The notes under the pieces are model-generated. The model had not been told where the DNA came from and made no database searches. It worked only from the letters and a program-made list of their open reading frames with translations. A stretch of DNA of 64,000 nt, from the NCBI RefSeq assembly GCF_900113765.1, contig NZ_FOQO01000015.1, forward strand, positions 1 through 64,000. The letters run 5' to 3'. Source of the stretch: Parapedobacter indicus. GTDB lineage: Bacteria; Bacteroidota; Bacteroidia; Sphingobacteriales; Sphingobacteriaceae. Shown piece after piece: positions 54,658-60,324 of the stretch; the first letter of the stretch is position 1; each line of letters begins with the position of its first letter. Both the position numbers and the translations under genes were made by a program.

Positions 54658-54846
54658 ATGAAGAAAGCGAGGTATCCTGAAAATTTGCCATTGAAGCTTG
54701 AAATTGTAAAATCCCGGCGTACCATCAAAGAGATTGCCGAGAAAATCGGCGTAAGCCGCGAGGTACTGACCAATACCGTGAACGGACACTATAAAGGTGT
54801 CGAAGTGATCAAGAAACTAAAGTCTGAACTAAACATTACCGATTGA
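54658..54846 (+). CDS. Small Cro-like HTH protein
   Basis: A 62-residue DNA-binding protein: LKLEIVKSRRTIKEIAEKIG followed by VSREVLTNTVNGHYKGVEVI, a single HTH_3 domain and nothing more. It is the first gene of the sigma-dCas12f operon; the sigma start lies 14 bases after its stop. It probably competes with the XRE repressor. Confidence 0.8.
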   Translation: MKKARYPENLPLKLEIVKSRRTIKEIAEKIGVSREVLTNTVNGHYKGVEVIKKLKSELNITD

Positions 54847-54860
54847 TTAAAATTCTACAC

Positions 54861-55679
54861 ATGCACACATCGACCTACCGAACAAGAAAGAATATCGAGC
54901 GTTTTTTCCAATCCTATAAAGCGGGTGATGAAGCTGGGCTGAATTATTTCTATCATGCCTATTACGGTCGCTACGCGTGGCGGGCTGAGCGATTTGTCAA
55001 AGATGATGTTGTGGCGCACGCCATGGCACAGGAGGCGTTTCTCCGGCTGTGGCTTATGCGGGATATCATCCGCGATGTAGACCACCTGCACGAATTTCTC
55101 GGCTTGCAGCTTCGCGAATCGGGCAAAGCCTACTATGGTAAAACCACCGATCGTTTCCACCGGAGCATGTTGAGGCTGGATGGCATCGAGGATTTCCAGG
55201 AATTCATGCTGGGCTATGAAATGGAGGAGGAGCAGGAGGAGGATGTCGTCTACCTCGAACAGTTGGAAATGGAAAAACAACGACAACTGGAGAAGATCAA
55301 TGGCTTGTTGCCTAACCTGACCGACCAGCAGCAACTATTCATCCGGCTATGCCTGCGGTATGGATTCAATTACGAACGCATCGCCTACCACCTCGGCGGT
55401 ATCTCAGACTATGAGGTTGCGCAACGCGTGGAGCAATGCATCACCAACCTGAAAGCCGCACTCTCGGATACGACCAAGCTGGACCGCGCCACCCGGACGA
55501 AGCCGCTCGTTACCGAAGGCATGCTCACCGAAGAGCAGGCGCAGGTGCTGGCGATGCGTTATGACCTGCAGTATTCCTTCGAGGAAATTGCCGAGGCCCT
55601 GCAATTGGACGATGCCAAAGTGAAATCGCTGTTTGTACAAGCGCATACTGTTATTAAAAAGGGGAAGCAATCGGCCTGA
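54861..55679 (+). CDS. Sigma factor with two region-4-like domains, dCas12f-linked
   Basis: A 272-residue sigma-70-like factor from ATG 54861. Region 2: IERFFQSYKAGDEAGLNYFY to VVAHAMAQEAFLRLWLMRDI. A very acidic linker (YEMEEEQEEDVVYLEQLEME) precedes a first region-4-like HTH (LPNLTDQQQLFIRLCLRYGF ... YERIAYHLGG). A second follows near the end (LTEEQAQVLAMRYDLQYSFE, EIAEALQLDDAKVKSLFVQA). Ordinary ECF factors have about 180 residues and one region 4. The stop is two bases from the Cas12f-like gene. From published work on dCas12f-sigma pairs I infer that it is recruited by the guide complex to start transcription. Confidence 0.82.
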   Translation: MHTSTYRTRKNIERFFQSYKAGDEAGLNYFYHAYYGRYAWRAERFVKDDVVAHAMAQEAFLRLWLMRDIIRDVDHLHEFLGLQLRESGKAYYGKTTDRFHRSMLRLDGIEDFQEFMLGYEMEEEQEEDVVYLEQLEMEKQRQLEKINGLLPNLTDQQQLFIRLCLRYGFNYERIAYHLGGISDYEVAQRVEQCITNLKAALSDTTKLDRATRTKPLVTEGMLTEEQAQVLAMRYDLQYSFEEIAEALQLDDAKVKSLFVQAHTVIKKGKQSA

Positions 55680-55681
55680 CC

Positions 55682-56134
55682 ATGGAAAAGAAGACCATCA
55701 TCCTGACGCGGAAAATACAGGTGTACGTTGACTGCGACGATAAAGCGCAGAAAGACGCGTACTACAAGCAACTGTATGAATGGCAGCTTTTAGCCTTTCA
55801 GGCGGCCAATCTGATCTTTACCAACCTGTATGTGCAGGATCGGGTGAAAGACCTGATTTACTTCACCGACGAGGTGAAGGTGAAGCTGGCCGACCGTGCC
55901 AAGGATGCCGAGGGCATTTTGAATACCTCGCGGATGAATACCACCTACCGCGTGCTATCCAGCAAGCTGCTGGGCAAGATGCCCTCGGAAATCTTTTCCA
56001 ATTTGAATAATTCGCTGACGAGCGTCTACAATACCGAGCGCAGCGTACTGGAAAGGGGAGAAGTCATTGCGGAATTACAAACGCAACATTCCGCTGCCCT
56101 TTTCGGGCAAGTCGTTGAAGTTCGTGGCGGATGA
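55682..56134 (+). CDS. dCas12f/TnpB-like protein, N-terminal part (frameshifted)
   Basis: A 150-residue frame whose first 124 residues read as the N-terminal wedge/REC part of a small Cas12f/TnpB-like protein: ILTRKIQVYVDCDDKAQKDA, YEWQLLAFQAANLIFTNLYV, and FSNLNNSLTSVYNTERSVLE. The last 26 residues are a shifted reading frame. At AAAGGGG (56052-56058) removing one G joins this frame to the next gene without a gap, giving a protein of about 363 residues. This is a mutation, a sequencing error or a controlled slip. It starts two bases after the sigma gene. Confidence 0.72.
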   Translation: MEKKTIILTRKIQVYVDCDDKAQKDAYYKQLYEWQLLAFQAANLIFTNLYVQDRVKDLIYFTDEVKVKLADRAKDAEGILNTSRMNTTYRVLSSKLLGKMPSEIFSNLNNSLTSVYNTERSVLERGEVIAELQTQHSAALFGQVVEVRGG

Positions 56135-56774
56135 AAAGCACCGCGAGTTCCGGTTCACGTTGTTCAAAATCCCGTTCAAGACGTATCTTGGTAAGGATAA
56201 GACGGATAAACGGGTGCTGATCCAGCGGAATGTAGCGGGTACGCTGAAACTCTGTGCAAGTTCCCTGAAAATCGATAAGGGTAAGCTGTACCTGCTGGCG
56301 GCCTTTGAGATGGAGCGCGACGAGCACCCGCTGAAAGACACGGTAATCGCTGAGGCTTCGCTTTCCATCGAACATCCCATCGTGGTGAAGGTAGGGAAGG
56401 GGCAGTTCCAAATCGGCAACAAGGAGGAATTCCTGCACCGTCGGCTGGCCATACAGGCCGCGAGGCACCGCTTGCAGCGGGGTTCGACCTACAACCGCCC
56501 AGGCAAGGGCCGCCAGCGTAAGTTGAAAAGCCTGGACGATTGGGATGCGAAAGAAAAACGGTATGTCGATAACCGGCTGCATTTGTATAGTAGGCGGCTG
56601 ATTGACCTGTGCGTGAAGTCGGAGGCAGGTACGCTGCTATTGGTCAACCAGCAGCAGAAGGAAGAAGTGGCCAAGGAAGAGGAGTTCCTGCTCCGCAACT
56701 GGAGTTATTACGGATTGAAGGAAAAGATTGCCTACAAGGCGAAGAAGGCGGGGATTAATGTGATAGAGGAGTAG
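56067..56774 (+). CDS. dCas12f/TnpB-like protein, C-terminal part, nuclease-dead
   Basis: A 235-residue frame (TTG start, so likely an artefact of the frameshift) holding the RuvC-like half. The place of the first RuvC Asp reads IVVKVGKGQFQIG, with Lys where Asp is needed; the second site reads LLLVNQQQ, without Glu. The TnpB phrase RRLAIQAARHRLQR ... YVDNRLHLYSRRLIDLC and NWSYYGLKEKIAYKAKKAGI are clear. The protein stops at GINVIEE, before the zinc finger and third RuvC site. It therefore should bind guide RNA and DNA but not cut. Confidence 0.78.
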   Translation: MRNYKRNIPLPFSGKSLKFVADEKHREFRFTLFKIPFKTYLGKDKTDKRVLIQRNVAGTLKLCASSLKIDKGKLYLLAAFEMERDEHPLKDTVIAEASLSIEHPIVVKVGKGQFQIGNKEEFLHRRLAIQAARHRLQRGSTYNRPGKGRQRKLKSLDDWDAKEKRYVDNRLHLYSRRLIDLCVKSEAGTLLLVNQQQKEEVAKEEEFLLRNWSYYGLKEKIAYKAKKAGINVIEE

Positions 56775-56862: not shown

Positions 56863-56940
56863 TGTTCTTTGAAAATCTTAGAGGCTGCTTGTACAGCCGC
56901 AGGGTGAGGTCAGGTTGACACTCACTGAATACTTTATTTT
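56863..56940 (+). ncRNA. Guide-RNA scaffold (tracr-like), copy 1
   Basis: A conserved element with stem GGCTG/CAGCC (56883-56887 and 56894-56898), stem GTGAG/CTCAC (56904-56908 and 56921-56925) and a tail TGAATACTTT that could pair with the AAAGGTAT of the repeats with one bulge. The same element recurs at 58684 and 59617, and it precedes each repeat array, always on the plus strand. The first stem resembles the GGCTGCTTG hairpin I recall in Cas12f1 tracrRNA. Confidence 0.75.
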
Positions 56941-56982
56941 TTGCGAATTTGCTTTTTTGCGAATTTGCCGTAGTGGTGGAAG

Positions 56983-57601
56983 CCAATTTGAAAGGTATAT
57001 ACAACTCTTCAACTAAATATCTATTTCTTTCTCGGGGTATTACAGACCCCACTTTGAAAGGTATATCCAACTTGTGCAAATCAACGACAACATTTGCCAA
57101 TAGGTATTACAGACCCCACTTTGAAAGGTATATCTAACGACAACATCGCTACTCCGTAAGCGGGTAGGTGTTGTTGACCCTAATTTGAAAGGTATATACA
57201 ACGATAAACGATATGGCTATAGATCACTGTTTGTTGTCGATGACCCCAATTTGAAAGGTATATACAACTCGCTTAGATACTTTGAAATCTTTCTATTGAA
57301 TGTTACTGATCTCAATTTGAAAGATATTGTTGTGGCTTTTAGCCGTTAGCTGATTTCTGAAAGCTGATAGCCGATACGCCCCCAATTCTTGAAAGGTATA
57401 TACAACTACCTGTCAGCGCAAAGACCACAAAGGTAGAGTGTTAAAGACCCGAATTAAATGTATGTACAATTATGCGCTGTATTGGGGCCAGTGTATTCAA
57501 GGCGTTACAGATCCTATTCGAAAGTTATTTACAACCTGAGAAGCTTCAATTTTGTGCTAACATCGGTGTTATAGACCCAAATTTGAAAGGTATATTATAA
57601 C
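56983..57601 (+). CRISPR. CRISPR-like array 1, about ten degenerate repeats
   Basis: Repeat units end in TTTGAAAGGTATATACAAC and begin GTnTTACAGACCCC. Units lie at 56983-57005 (partial), 57037-57071, 57104-57138, 57168-57202, 57234-57268, 57300-57334, 57372-57406, 57438-57470, 57502-57535 and 57566-57601. Spacers are 29-32 nt, mostly 31. One spacing, between 57334 and 57372, is atypical and resembles the TTAGCTG low-complexity DNA at 56773. No cas1/cas2 are present. Units have drifted far more than in a live array. Confidence 0.85.
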
Positions 57602-57674
57602 GCGAGGCCATAGACTTCGTTTGAAGTTTGCTTTATTTTGGTTATTTTTGTTAAAAACAATAGGAGAGATGTCT

Positions 57675-57893
57675 ATGGAATTGGCTGGGAAACTGACGAA
57701 TGTACAAATAGAATTGCTTAAATTGTTTAAGTACGACCTCCCTGAAAAGCAATTGAAGGAAGTGAGAAATCTATTGGCTGCTTATTTTGCTGGAGCGGCT
57801 GCTGATGAAATGGATAGGCTTTGGGACGAAAACGGGTGGGACAACGACACGATGAAGCAGTGGGCAGATGAACACCTAAGAAAAAAGCACTGA
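57675..57893 (+). CDS. Antitoxin-like protein paired with PIN toxin
   Basis: A 72-residue protein from ATG 57675, which has an AGGAG ribosome site at good distance; ATG 57669 is an alternative. NVQIELLKLFKYDLPEKQLK, then a helical acidic tail ending DEHLRKKH. The pattern is that of small antitoxins partnered to PIN toxins. The toxin begins 3 bases after the stop. It lies inside the CRISPR-like region, directly after array 1. Confidence 0.75.
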   Translation: MELAGKLTNVQIELLKLFKYDLPEKQLKEVRNLLAAYFAGAAADEMDRLWDENGWDNDTMKQWADEHLRKKH

Positions 57894-57896
57894 CCT

Positions 57897-58310
57897 ATGG
57901 TCGTCGTGTTTGATACCAATGTCCTTTTGGTCTCTATTGCCAGAAAATCAATCTACCGTCCAATCTTCGATGCGCTTTTGATAGGGAAGTTCAGCTTGGT
58001 AATCAGCAACGAGATAATGAGCGAGTATGTTGAAATTATTGAACAGCGCTCTAACGCGATGGTGGCTAATAATATTGCCGAGATGCTGTTGAGTTTGGAG
58101 AATTTGCAGAAAGTGGAGATTTTTTATGATTGGAGGTTGATAAACAATGATCCCGATGATGATAAGTTTGTCAATGCTGCTATGGTTGGAAAAGCGGATT
58201 ACATTGTCTCCAATGACAAGCATTTTAAGGTGTTGGAATCTATTGAATTTCCAAAAGTCCAAGTCTTGGATATCGATACATTCTTAGAGATGGTTCTAAC
58301 ATGGAGTTAA
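57897..58310 (+). CDS. PIN-domain toxin (COG1569-like)
   Basis: A 137-residue PIN-domain ribonuclease. Acidic residues for metal binding are in VVFDTNVLLVSI, near SNEIMSEYVEII and in NDPDDDKFVNAAMVGKADYI, ending SNDKHFKVLE. Length and motifs are complete, so the toxin is probably active and held in check by its partner. It would cleave RNA. Its retention between arrays could stabilise the locus. Confidence 0.88.
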   Translation: MVVVFDTNVLLVSIARKSIYRPIFDALLIGKFSLVISNEIMSEYVEIIEQRSNAMVANNIAEMLLSLENLQKVEIFYDWRLINNDPDDDKFVNAAMVGKADYIVSNDKHFKVLESIEFPKVQVLDIDTFLEMVLTWS

Positions 58311-58313
58311 TGT

Positions 58314-58433
58314 TTAAGAGCAAAGTTGGAATTTTTCGGTCTGGACTTTTTTTGAGACATGTTCACTGTAATACTCAACCGCCTGTTCAACCTGTTTGCC
58401 GGCTTCAGGAGTGATGAGGACACTATAGCCCAT
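58314..58433 (-). pseudogene. Truncated RelE/ParE-family toxin
   Basis: Only 39 residues: MGYSVLITPEAGKQVEQAVE and a little more, the N-terminus of a ParE-type toxin of normally about 95-100 residues. It stops at 58314-58316, next to the PIN gene end, so the rest has been deleted. Its ATG overlaps the antitoxin stop by 11 bases, as in intact modules. Confidence 0.7.
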
Positions 58434-58638
58434 ATTTCCCTTTTAGGCTTTCGTATAAATCCATTGCTGGGAGGCAATCCTCAATAGGAACATCGTTTTG
58501 TCGTAAAAGAAAGTTCTTTTGTTCTTCGGTTAGTTGAAATTCACGCTCTTTAGCTTCATAGGTGGCACCTATAAGTTCCAGCACCTCAAGAAAAAAAGAG
58601 GTTTTATCTTCGGGAACCGATAGGTTGAACGTTGTCAT
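58423..58638 (-). CDS. Antitoxin-like protein, partner toxin broken
   Basis: A 71-residue protein: TFNLSVPEDKTSFFLEVLEL, IGATYEAKEREFQLTEEQKN and a short end LYESLKGKYGL. It resembles the small antitoxins next to ParE in Bacteroidota and is similar in layout to the protein at 59102. The adjacent toxin is only a fragment, so this antitoxin is orphaned. Confidence 0.75.
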   Translation of the reverse strand: MTTFNLSVPEDKTSFFLEVLELIGATYEAKEREFQLTEEQKNFLLRQNDVPIEDCLPAMDLYESLKGKYGL

Positions 58639-58683
58639 AATTCAAAGATAATAAAATTCGCTCAGATTTGGCAAGTATCCAAT

Positions 58684-58795
58684 GTACTCTTTGAAATCTT
58701 AGAGGCTGTATACAGCCGCAGGGTGAGGTCAGGTTGGCATCACTGAATACTTTTTATACAACAGAGCCTCGATTGGAAAAATCAAGGGTTTGTTC
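58684..58795 (+). ncRNA. Scaffold copy 2 fused to a guide (sgRNA-like)
   Basis: The scaffold (stems GGCTGTATACAGCC and GTGA/TCAC) runs from 58684 through CACTGAATACTTT and directly into TATACAAC (58755-58762), the last eight bases of the repeat. A guide-like stretch starting AGAGCCTCGATTGG follows. No full repeat lies between. The RNA could thus act as a single guide without a separate tracr. The 3' limit is not defined. Confidence 0.65.
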
Positions 58796-58842
58796 TGTGC
58801 TTTAAGATGCTACAATGCGGTCGGTTCTGAAAAAACTTTTTC

Positions 58843-59057
58843 GCTGTTACAGACCTATACAACCGATGGATGCTTTTTCTAAATCTTCATCAGAGTGTTA
58901 CAAACTCCAATTTGAAAGGTGTATGCAACCTCTGAACCCAAGAAACTCGAAAGTAAACGGGTGTTAAAAACCCCAATTTGAAAGGTATATACAACATTTA
59001 TTCAATTATCAAATCTACAGAATATGGTGTTACAAACTCCAATTTGAAAGGTATTTT
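58843..59057 (+). CRISPR. CRISPR-like array 2, four repeats
   Basis: Units at 58843-58863 (centre deleted: GTTACAGACC joined to TATACAAC), 58895-58929, 58961-58995 and 59027-59057 (3' end lost). Spacers at 58864-58894, 58930-58960 and 58996-59026 are all exactly 31 nt. The upstream part of the region after scaffold 2 has no other gene. Confidence 0.85.
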
Positions 59058-59084
59058 GAAAAGAGATATTCATCGGTATCTTTG
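59056..59084 (+). promoter_or_regulatory. Promoter of the third toxin-antitoxin module
   Basis: TTG (59056-59058) and TATCTTTG (59077-59084) are spaced by 18 bases. The TTG lies in the broken end of the last array-2 repeat. The ATG of the antitoxin is 17 bases beyond. Confidence 0.5.
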
Positions 59085-59101
59085 TTTTAAACGTGACTCG
59101 C

Positions 59102-59311
59102 ATGACACAGGTGACCCTACATATTGACAGCAAAAAAAAGTGGGCAGCCATAAAGACCATTTTGGAAGCTATGGATATTGCTTACGATGCACAGGAGCCT
59201 GTGAAGGAAGTCAGTGAAAAAGAACAGATGTTGCTACAGCGGGCGGAAGCAGACGTTGCTGAGGGGCGACTGCACAAGTTTAAATCCCATCGTGAAATAT
59301 TAGGTAGTTAG
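59102..59311 (+). CDS. Antitoxin-like protein
   Basis: A 69-residue protein from ATG 59102 (a GTG nine bases earlier is possible). TQVTLHIDSKKKWAAIKTIL then MLLQRAEADVAEGRLHKFKS. This is the pattern of small antitoxins with a C-terminal toxin-binding helix. Its toxin gene follows directly but is broken. Confidence 0.75.
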   Translation: MTQVTLHIDSKKKWAAIKTILEAMDIAYDAQEPVKEVSEKEQMLLQRAEADVAEGRLHKFKSHREILGS

Positions 59312-59600
59312 TTAAGAAAACCGAATATACCGAAACCTACAAAGAAACCTTATCAGCCGTAGTTTCGATAATCGAACGCGATTGGGGCGACCGATATGTG
59401 GATCGATTTCTGAATCAACTTGACGATGTGGTTGAAAAAATCCAGACTTACCCTTATCTGTTTCAGGCTATACCTATAAACTCGAGATACAAAAGGTGCG
59501 TTATTTCCAAATAAACGTCCTTAGTTTACGATGTTACCGACTCGAAAATTATACTCCTGTATTTATTTGATAGTCGCCAAGAACCATTATGGGATTAGGT
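59312..59600 (+). pseudogene. ParE/RelE toxin, no start and internal stop
   Basis: The frame beginning at 59311 reads KKTEYTETYKETLSAVVSII and WGDRYVDRFLNQLDDVVEKI, then YPYLFQAIPINSRYKRCVIS and a stop TAA at 59512-59514. After it, in the same frame, TSLVYDVTDSKIILLYLFDS continues the family pattern. No start codon exists near the antitoxin end. This is a clear dead ParE toxin. The end of the frame is uncertain. Confidence 0.72.
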
Positions 59601-59616
59601 GTCGTTAAGCTTTCGT

Positions 59617-59690
59617 ATTCGAAATTTTAGAGGCTGCTTGTACAGCCGTAGGGTGAGGTCACGTTGACACTCACTGAATACTTTTTTATT
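59617..59690 (+). ncRNA. Guide-RNA scaffold (tracr-like), copy 3
   Basis: Nearly identical to copy 1: GAGGCTGCTTGTACAGCC, then GGTGAGGTCACGTTGACA and CTCACTGAATACTTTTT. Stems and tail are conserved; the changes are single bases. It precedes the short third array by about 80 bases. Confidence 0.75.
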
Positions 59691-59765
59691 TGCACCAAGA
59701 GTCTTGACTGCGAAAACAATAAGGTACATGTAATGTAAATTGGTTTTCTTCCTTGGATAAAATAT

Positions 59766-59858
59766 CGTTGCCGATTCCAATTTGAAAGGTATATACAACT
59801 GTTCTAGGTGCTACCTTCGGTAGTAGCTGGGTGTTAGTAACCCCAATTTGAAGGGAGT
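59766..59858 (+). CRISPR. CRISPR-like array 3, two repeats
   Basis: Repeat at 59766-59800 and a partial one at 59832-59858, with one 31-nt spacer (59801-59831) that contains the small hairpin CTACC/GGTAG. The second repeat loses its 3' end at GAAGGGAG, so the array is broken on that side. No gene lies between 59600 and 59919. Confidence 0.8.
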
Positions 59859-59919
59859 GGAATATCGGGGTTACAGCAACACATTTTGTAAGCTGGCCCT
59901 TCGGAATTAACCAACTAGC

Positions 59920-60324
59920 TTACGGGCGCATCTCAATGATGCTGTCCACAACGAACACACTGAAGCCACGCCAGGGAATCGCATGTTTGTATTCCCGGTA
60001 ATGCAGGTCAAATGTCTTGCCGCTATTGAGCATCAACACATTGGCGATACTGTCATTTTCTACGGAGAATTCGAATTCATTGGATTGGATAGTACCGGTA
60101 GAAGCTGATCTTAGCCCCACCTGTATCAGTTTTCCTTCATAAGTCTTGAAGATGTTGCCTTTTTTGACCACATAATTCAGCTGGCCGGATTTGACCCCTT
60201 CGCCGAATACATAGTAGTAATTCCACCAAATCATCCCTGCGGCGATAACAAGCAGGGCGATTCCGGCGATCGTAAGGTAATTTCGAAAGGACTTCCATCT
60301 TGGGGCGATTTGTTCACGTGCCAT
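59920..60324 (-). CDS. Conserved single-span membrane protein
   Basis: A 134-residue protein from ATG 60324 (the upstream frame to 60504 has no family pattern). After PRWKSFRNYLTIAG comes one membrane helix (IALLVIAAGMIWWNYYYVFG), then a periplasmic beta-rich domain: GQLNYVVKKGNIFKTYEGKL, NEFEFSVENDSIANVLMLNS. It is common in Bacteroidota; some relatives carry wrong names. Function unknown. Confidence 0.8.
   Translation of the reverse strand: MAREQIAPRWKSFRNYLTIAGIALLVIAAGMIWWNYYYVFGEGVKSGQLNYVVKKGNIFKTYEGKLIQVGLRSASTGTIQSNEFEFSVENDSIANVLMLNSGKTFDLHYREYKHAIPWRGFSVFVVDSIIEMRP

What the first reader, a model, noticed from the sequence alone, without database searches (positions are those of the whole stretch)
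58684..58795. Naturally fused scaffold and guide, like a single-guide RNA
In scaffold copy 2 the tail TGAATACTTTT runs directly into TATACAAC, the last eight bases of the repeat, followed by a unique guide-like stretch. This would remove the need for a separate tracr and processing, and points to evolution from CRISPR array to fixed single-guide genes.
Basis: partly seen in the sequence, partly recalled or inferred. Interest (0 to 1): 0.8.

Follow-up and report, generated by a model that had tools for sequence, protein, structure and literature searches.

The report
Worn single-guide copy, RNA-guided activator
The stretch is one of three guide-RNA genes beside a disabled CRISPR protein and its partner sigma factor, a known kind of bacterial gene activator that often uses ready-made single guides; this copy has that layout but looks worn and has no clear target left.

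Summary
The letters are as described: scaffold tail TGAATACTTTT (58744-58754) runs into TATACAAC (58755-58762), an 8-mer found in the window only inside this locus. The locus is a nuclease-dead Cas12f plus sigma factor (PDB 9n9c 'Nuclease-deactivated Cas12f', 6.6e-86; 9n9q RpoE, 1.7e-39): RNA-guided transcription, not immunity. The scaffold is a real RNA (8 of 13 pairs with compensatory changes).

A guide joined to the scaffold is genuine and frequent in this family: 19 of 19 full copies in 12 loci of Flavobacteriaceae and one MAG, including the species of the solved protein. Relatives' guides match 5'-G sites in a conserved leader, often upstream of SusC-type genes.

Copy 2 itself is doubtful. 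It has the only shortened hairpin loop among 175 full copies and a broken stem pair. Its 'unique' guide is not unique: the same block follows copy 3 and occurs in P. composti and P. soli; it appears to descend from guides aimed at the leader's AGTCTCG site. No good target was found in its own genome (homologous leader site: 10 of 15). The dCas12f gene beside it is frameshifted. The claimed direction, array to single guide, is not shown.

The parts
54843..55679 (+). sigma factor gene (ECF-like), partner of dCas12f
   Evidence: PDB 9n9q_C RpoE 1.7e-39; Pfam Sigma70_r4 3.2e-9
55682..56774 (+). dCas12f gene, split into two overlapping frames (55682-56134, 56067-56774) by a frameshift; open in five congeners listed
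   Evidence: aspartate of the first RuvC motif replaced and C-terminal part missing in the alignment to active Cas12f
56873..56941 (+). scaffold copy 1, followed after a linker by repeat and array
56970..57600 (+). array of 36-nt repeats, ~66-nt period, partly degenerate
   Evidence: D1
58690..58754 (+). scaffold copy 2: hairpin-1 loop shortened, one base missing in the second stem
58755..58762 (+). TATACAAC, repeat end joined directly to the scaffold tail
58763..58782 (+). guide-like stretch AGAGCCTCGATTGGAAAAAT, related to guides aimed at the AGTCTCG site of a conserved leader
58894..59061 (+). three further 36-nt repeats after copy 2
59618..59690 (+). scaffold copy 3
59698..59734 (+). block homologous to the copy-2 'guide' (AGAGTCTTGACTGCGAAAA...), running into a repeat-like end AAGGTACATGTAAT
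59764..59855 (+). two repeats of the third array

Best explanation
The locus is a dCas12f-sigma RNA-guided transcription system in a species of the genus Parapedobacter. dCas12f binds a scaffold RNA, the guide leads it to a site next to a 5'-G in a leader upstream of an operon, and the bound sigma factor recruits RNA polymerase (this mechanism is recalled from the published family, not tested here). Copy 2 is a scaffold with repeat end and guide joined in one RNA, the natural single-guide layout of the family. Its guide appears to descend from guides aimed at the AGTCTCG site of a conserved leader, but scaffold and guide have drifted, so it is most likely a decaying or weak single guide. Shown: family, scaffold RNA, fused layout and guide-leader matches in relatives. 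Inferred: that copy 2 is transcribed, and that it has lost function.
For: Proteins. Scaffold: 8 of 13 pairs with compensatory changes over 54 sequences. Fused layout: 62 of 153 under 25 nt; 19 of 19 full copies in 12 Flavobacteriaceae/MAG loci; the A. taeanensis piece L126 is identical to 9n9c over 232 residues and has a fused guide downstream. Targets in relatives: A. abyssi guide matches 14 of its first 14 bases at two sites after a G, and the same element precedes a Plug-domain gene in A. zhangzhouensis; Galbibacter: 7 matches against 0 in the control, 3 of them guide-RNA copies, 4 others, two of these 613-642 bp before Plug-domain genes; 18 of 614 guides match leaders at >=13/14 after a G against 1 of 1842 shuffles, 8 of the 18 after dropping hits to leaders found through guides and the guides used to find them. 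Copy-2 stretch, from its third base, matches one family leader 13 of 15 after a G; 5 of 300 shuffles and 2 of 300 random window 21-mers do as well. Decay: the only gap at stem pair 39-55 among 54; only shortened hairpin loop among 175 full copies (read by eye); no own target.
Against: P. defluvii carries window 58345-60269, copy 2 included, with one substitution and one 13-nt indel, and its dCas12f frame is open (L010): the odd copy persists in a second species, though the exchange may be recent. Nine other full copies also lack the usual CTCAC stem motif. The 2-nt shift needed for the leader match is not seen in the best relative's guide (L067). The copy-2/leader match alone has a chance level of about 1-2%. 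For A. taeanensis itself no clear site was found at <=2 mismatches in 16. No expression data.
Confidence: 0.62

Rival explanations
1. Copy 2 is a fully working natural single-guide RNA.
For: Layout equals the family's fused copies; TATACAAC is confined to the locus; nearly identical copy in P. defluvii, which has an open dCas12f frame; related guide in P. composti.
Against: Scaffold deletions; no own-genome target, none for the P. composti guide either (only itself at <=2 mismatches in 16); no 11-base seed match upstream of 56 SusC genes; own leader only 10 of 15; the guide's AGCCUC can pair with GAGGC of the scaffold in the predicted centroid fold; frameshifted dCas12f.
Confidence: 0.18
2. 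TATACAAC here belongs to a conserved loop element (RCAAYAGA...) and the real guide starts further on, after a second repeat end.
For: 10 of 175 full copies (none of 19 in the Flavobacteriaceae set) carry RCAAYAGA close after the scaffold, and most of them have a second repeat-like end 20-40 nt further on; the copy-3 and first P. soli blocks lack the CAAC yet are related or run into a degenerate repeat.
Against: In that same set the stretch directly after the first CAAY (AGACGGTAGGTTAATG) matches leaders 14/14 after a G, so the first position does serve as a guide there. In copy 2 the second end is not recognisable, and the candidate second guide had no excess of matches over the control beyond chance-like sites (43 v 26 and 34 v 31 at <=3 mismatches).
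Confidence: 0.15
3. An ordinary CRISPR immunity array whose leader-proximal unit is degenerate.
For: 36-nt repeats at ~66-nt spacing with differing spacers.
Against: dCas12f is nuclease-dead by sequence and sits beside a sigma factor; array 1 has no match in 50,697 phage records and the copy-2 20-mer none in IMG/VR; relatives' guides match chromosomal leaders.
Confidence: 0.05

Closest known systems
dCas12f-sigmaE RNA-guided transcription system (PDB 9n9c, 9n9m, 9n9o, 9n9q; papers recalled, not read)
   Same: Orthologous dCas12f and sigma factor side by side, guide-RNA scaffold downstream, fused guides in relatives; L126 is identical to the solved protein over 232 residues.
   Different: Here three scaffold copies with repeat arrays, one joined guide with a worn scaffold, and a frameshifted dCas12f.
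Type V-F CRISPR-Cas12f
   Same: Cas12f fold by sequence, repeat arrays, tracr-like scaffold with an anti-repeat-like tail.
   Different: RuvC residues and C-terminal part missing; sigma partner; relatives' guides match own chromosomal leaders.
Engineered single-guide RNA (tracr-crRNA fusion)
   Same: Scaffold, short hairpin, repeat end and guide in one RNA.
   Different: Occurs naturally here; in copy 2 the joining hairpin is only 3 A-U pairs.

Membership tests
dCas12f-sigmaE RNA-guided transcription | Cas12f homolog lacking nuclease residues | tested here: met
   but the gene is split by a frameshift in this window
dCas12f-sigmaE RNA-guided transcription | Adjacent cognate sigma factor gene | tested here: met
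   9n9q_C RpoE 1.7e-39, gene ends 2 nt before dCas12f
dCas12f-sigmaE RNA-guided transcription | Conserved structured guide-RNA scaffold near the gene | tested here: met
   Covariation in 8 of 13 pairs
dCas12f-sigmaE RNA-guided transcription | Guides match chromosomal sites next to 5'-G upstream of operons | tested here: inconclusive
   Met in relatives; not met for the window's own guides
dCas12f-sigmaE RNA-guided transcription | Activates transcription | not testable with these tools
   Needs experiment
Natural single-guide RNA | Scaffold, repeat end and guide contiguous | tested here: met
   Sequence; same layout in relatives
Natural single-guide RNA | Intact scaffold | tested here: not met
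   Shortened loop and broken pair
Natural single-guide RNA | Guide with a target in the genome | tested here: not met
   own leader 10 of 15
Type V-F CRISPR immunity | Active RuvC nuclease | tested here: not met
Type V-F CRISPR immunity | Spacers matching phages | tested here: not met
   Array 1 against phages; copy-2 20-mer against IMG/VR; other arrays not tested
Type V-F CRISPR immunity | Adaptation genes cas1/cas2 | not tested
   No family search was made for them

The most novel reading that the evidence does not exclude
One dCas12f-sigma family runs a mixed guide economy, arrays read in trans plus ready-joined single guides, and across genera different guides converge on several fixed sites (AGTCTCG, AGACGGTAG, ATGGGCTCTAT) of one conserved ~220-nt leader upstream of SusC-type and other operons, in one species (P. 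gandavensis) upstream of the sigma-dCas12f operon itself; window copy 2 is a working single guide for the AGTCTCG site that tolerates mismatches or serves dCas12f of another locus or strain.
Probability: 0.15. Interest if true: 0.65.

Novelty: new member of a known kind. Interest (0 to 1): 0.42.

Why it matters
It shows that 'natural single-guide' is a real and recurring layout in a known RNA-guided activator, and separates that from the weaker claim that this copy works. The by-product, guides of several genera matching fixed sites of one conserved leader, makes the question 'what do these activators switch on, and where do their guides come from?' directly testable by sequence and by reporter assays.

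Tried and rejected
Own-genome target searches for the copy-2 guide: 20-mer with 3 mismatches (itself and three sites, all inside open reading frames; control 0), 15-mer with 1 mismatch (itself only). P. composti guide, 16-mer with 2 mismatches (itself only; control 2). Core pattern CTCGWTTGSRAAAAW in 7 Parapedobacter genomes (three guide-RNA copies and one site in an open reading frame; control 3). Second-guide pattern in two genomes (43 v 26 and 34 v 31 control). 16 window guides, 11-base exact seeds, against 543,128 bases of own genome including the regions upstream of 56 SusC genes (four chance-like hits, none for copy 2). In-locus targets for 221 candidate guides: apart from repeats and other guide copies only scattered weak matches. 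The AGACGGTAG pattern search gave 5 matches in 3 genomes (three are guide RNAs) against 4 in the control, so the count alone proves nothing; the leader was accepted only through homology and the guide test.\n\nThe idea that the near CAAC is a loop and not a repeat end was held for a while (note) and then weakened. Rfam: nothing at gathering score in the window; in four leader loci only microRNA models far below their gathering scores. Fold energies of five guide RNAs are not unusual except copy 1 (z -2.55, others -0.52 to -1.87). 54 of 75 available scaffold sequences went into the covariation alignment; 54 of 80 loci plus the window into the tree. The array label there rests on a repeat model built from window repeats only, so diverged arrays may be missed. 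Papers: five searches listed no paper on dCas12f-sigma systems; no paper was read; what is said of the published mechanism is recalled.\n\n

Full report
Observation. TATACAAC occurs eight times in 64 kb, all on the + strand inside the locus. Three scaffold copies (56873, 58690, 59618) and 36-nt repeats at ~66-nt spacing surround it; in the own genome the scaffold was found nowhere else.

What the locus is. The gene at 54843-55679 matches one PDB chain, 9n9q_C RpoE, at 1.7e-39. The next gene matches 9n9c 'Nuclease-deactivated Cas12f' with both its pieces (6.6e-86 and 1.8e-31). Against active Cas12f the first RuvC aspartate is replaced and the chain ends early. This is the dCas12f-sigma system; its published mechanism (guide RNA, 5'-G target motif, recruitment of RNA polymerase) is recalled, since five paper searches listed no such paper. 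36 of 201 genomes sampled from the family have the protein. In the window the gene is split over two overlapping frames; in the five congeners with over 90% identity the frame is open.

The scaffold. A profile from window and congener copies found 180 copies in 80 related loci; with the window's three, 175 of 183 are full. RNAalifold on 54 of them gives two hairpins, 13 pairs, 8 with compensatory changes. Window copy 2 is the one sequence with a gap at pair 39-55. 142 of 175 copies have the loop CTTGT; of the 33 others, 32 keep a five-base loop of similar kind and copy 2 alone is shortened (read by eye). Ten of 175 lack the CTCAC-type stem motif, copy 2 among them.

Is a joined guide real in this family? 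Distances from scaffold to the first repeat-like end are bimodal: 62 of 153 measured are under 25 nt, most of the rest over 40 (16 anchored copies had none within reach, 6 had no anchor, copy 2 among these 6). All 19 full copies in 11 Flavobacteriaceae loci and one Bacteroidia MAG are of the short kind. There a small hairpin of changing sequence (for example ATGC..GCAT, GAGC..GCTC, GTGT..ACAC) precedes ATACAAC and the guide. The A. taeanensis protein L126 is identical to 9n9c over 232 residues. So the joined layout is normal here and not peculiar to the window.

Targets in relatives. The A. abyssi guide matches 14 of 14 bases at two sites after a G; the same element lies 301 bp before a Plug-domain gene in A. 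zhangzhouensis. For A. taeanensis itself no clear site was found at <=2 mismatches in 16, where the control had as many matches. The Galbibacter guide gave 7 matches against 0 in the control: three guide-RNA copies and four others, three of the four after a G, two of them 613 and 642 bp before Plug-domain genes. A P. tibetensis guide led to a site in an intergenic element, which proved to be a conserved ~220-nt leader: 34 of 201 family genomes have a match at E <= 0.01, some only to its last 30 bases. It usually lies divergent to an HTH gene; SusC-like and other genes start about 400-600 nt further on (by eye). In P. gandavensis it lies directly before the sigma-dCas12f operon. Of 614 candidate guides, 18 match one of 32 leaders at >=13/14 after a G, all on the + strand, against 1 of 1842 shuffles; dropping hits to the seven leaders found through guides, and the two guides used to find the leader, leaves 8.

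The copy-2 guide. Related blocks follow window copy 3, P. composti and the second P. soli scaffold, and one lies near a P. tibetensis scaffold. In 26 of 26 leaders the AGTCTC element is preceded by G, and an S. alkalisoli guide matches it 14/14. Shifted by two bases, the copy-2 stretch matches one leader 13 of 15; with all offsets and both strands allowed, 5 of 300 shuffles and 2 of 300 random 21-mers reach this. The own genome has one recognisable leader, at C21 near 100775, before a DUF5117/DUF5118 gene; copy 2 matches its site 10 of 15, copy 3 12 of 15 and the P. composti guide 13 of 15. Direct searches found no own target, and no window guide reached 12 of 14 on the leaders at the plain register.

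Reading. Copy 2 most likely is a single-guide unit of the family type that has drifted: worn scaffold, weak joining hairpin, guide without a good target, beside a frameshifted dCas12f. Against this stands its near-identical presence in P. defluvii (one substitution and one 13-nt indel over 58345-60269), where the dCas12f frame is open; the sigma-dCas12f operon there is only 90.2% identical to the window's, which suggests recent exchange of the guide block. A rival, that the near CAAC is part of a loop and the guide lies further on, rests on ten copies with RCAAYAGA but is weakened by the 14/14 matches of the stretch right after it in two of them.

Evolution. On a tree of 54 loci, the window and two active Cas12f, loci labelled array (13), fused (22), mixed (9) and neither (11) are interspersed; array needs 4 changes and the deep forks are open. 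Neither 'array to single guide' nor the reverse is shown.

Verdict.

Noticed in passing
L246 1445-1690; L269 around 1313-1550 (own genome C21 near 100775-101006); L120 8580-8812: Conserved ~220-nt, structured-looking leader in 34 of 201 family genomes (E <= 0.01, some matches short), no Rfam family, usually divergent to an HTH gene; sites in it are matched by dCas12f guides of several genera. In P. gandavensis it precedes the sigma-dCas12f operon.
   Followed up: partly
58345-60269: One substitution and one 13-nt indel against P. defluvii C18 (L222), while the sigma-dCas12f operon is 90.2% identical to P. defluvii: the guide block looks recently exchanged.
   Followed up: partly
55682-56774: dCas12f split by a frameshift; open frames in the five closest congeners listed.
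   Followed up: partly
57672-58310: PIN-domain toxin-like gene (PIN_3, 2e-18) with a small upstream partner ORF sits between guide arrays 1 and 2.
   Followed up: no
59105-59580: Small ORF followed by a stop-interrupted frame that looks like a ParE/RelE-type toxin (recalled look, not tested) between arrays 2 and 3.
   Followed up: no
L060 10899-14402: P. luteus has a large array of such repeats (33 repeat-model matches in the locus) around three scaffolds.
   Followed up: no
L225, L226, L228: Galbibacter orientalis has three guide-RNA copies with the same guide; two of them stand behind a dCas12f gene.
   Followed up: no
L246 from 1865 on; L257, L261: Genes after some leaders begin with long odd serine/arginine-rich stretches, unlike ordinary signal peptides.
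   Followed up: no
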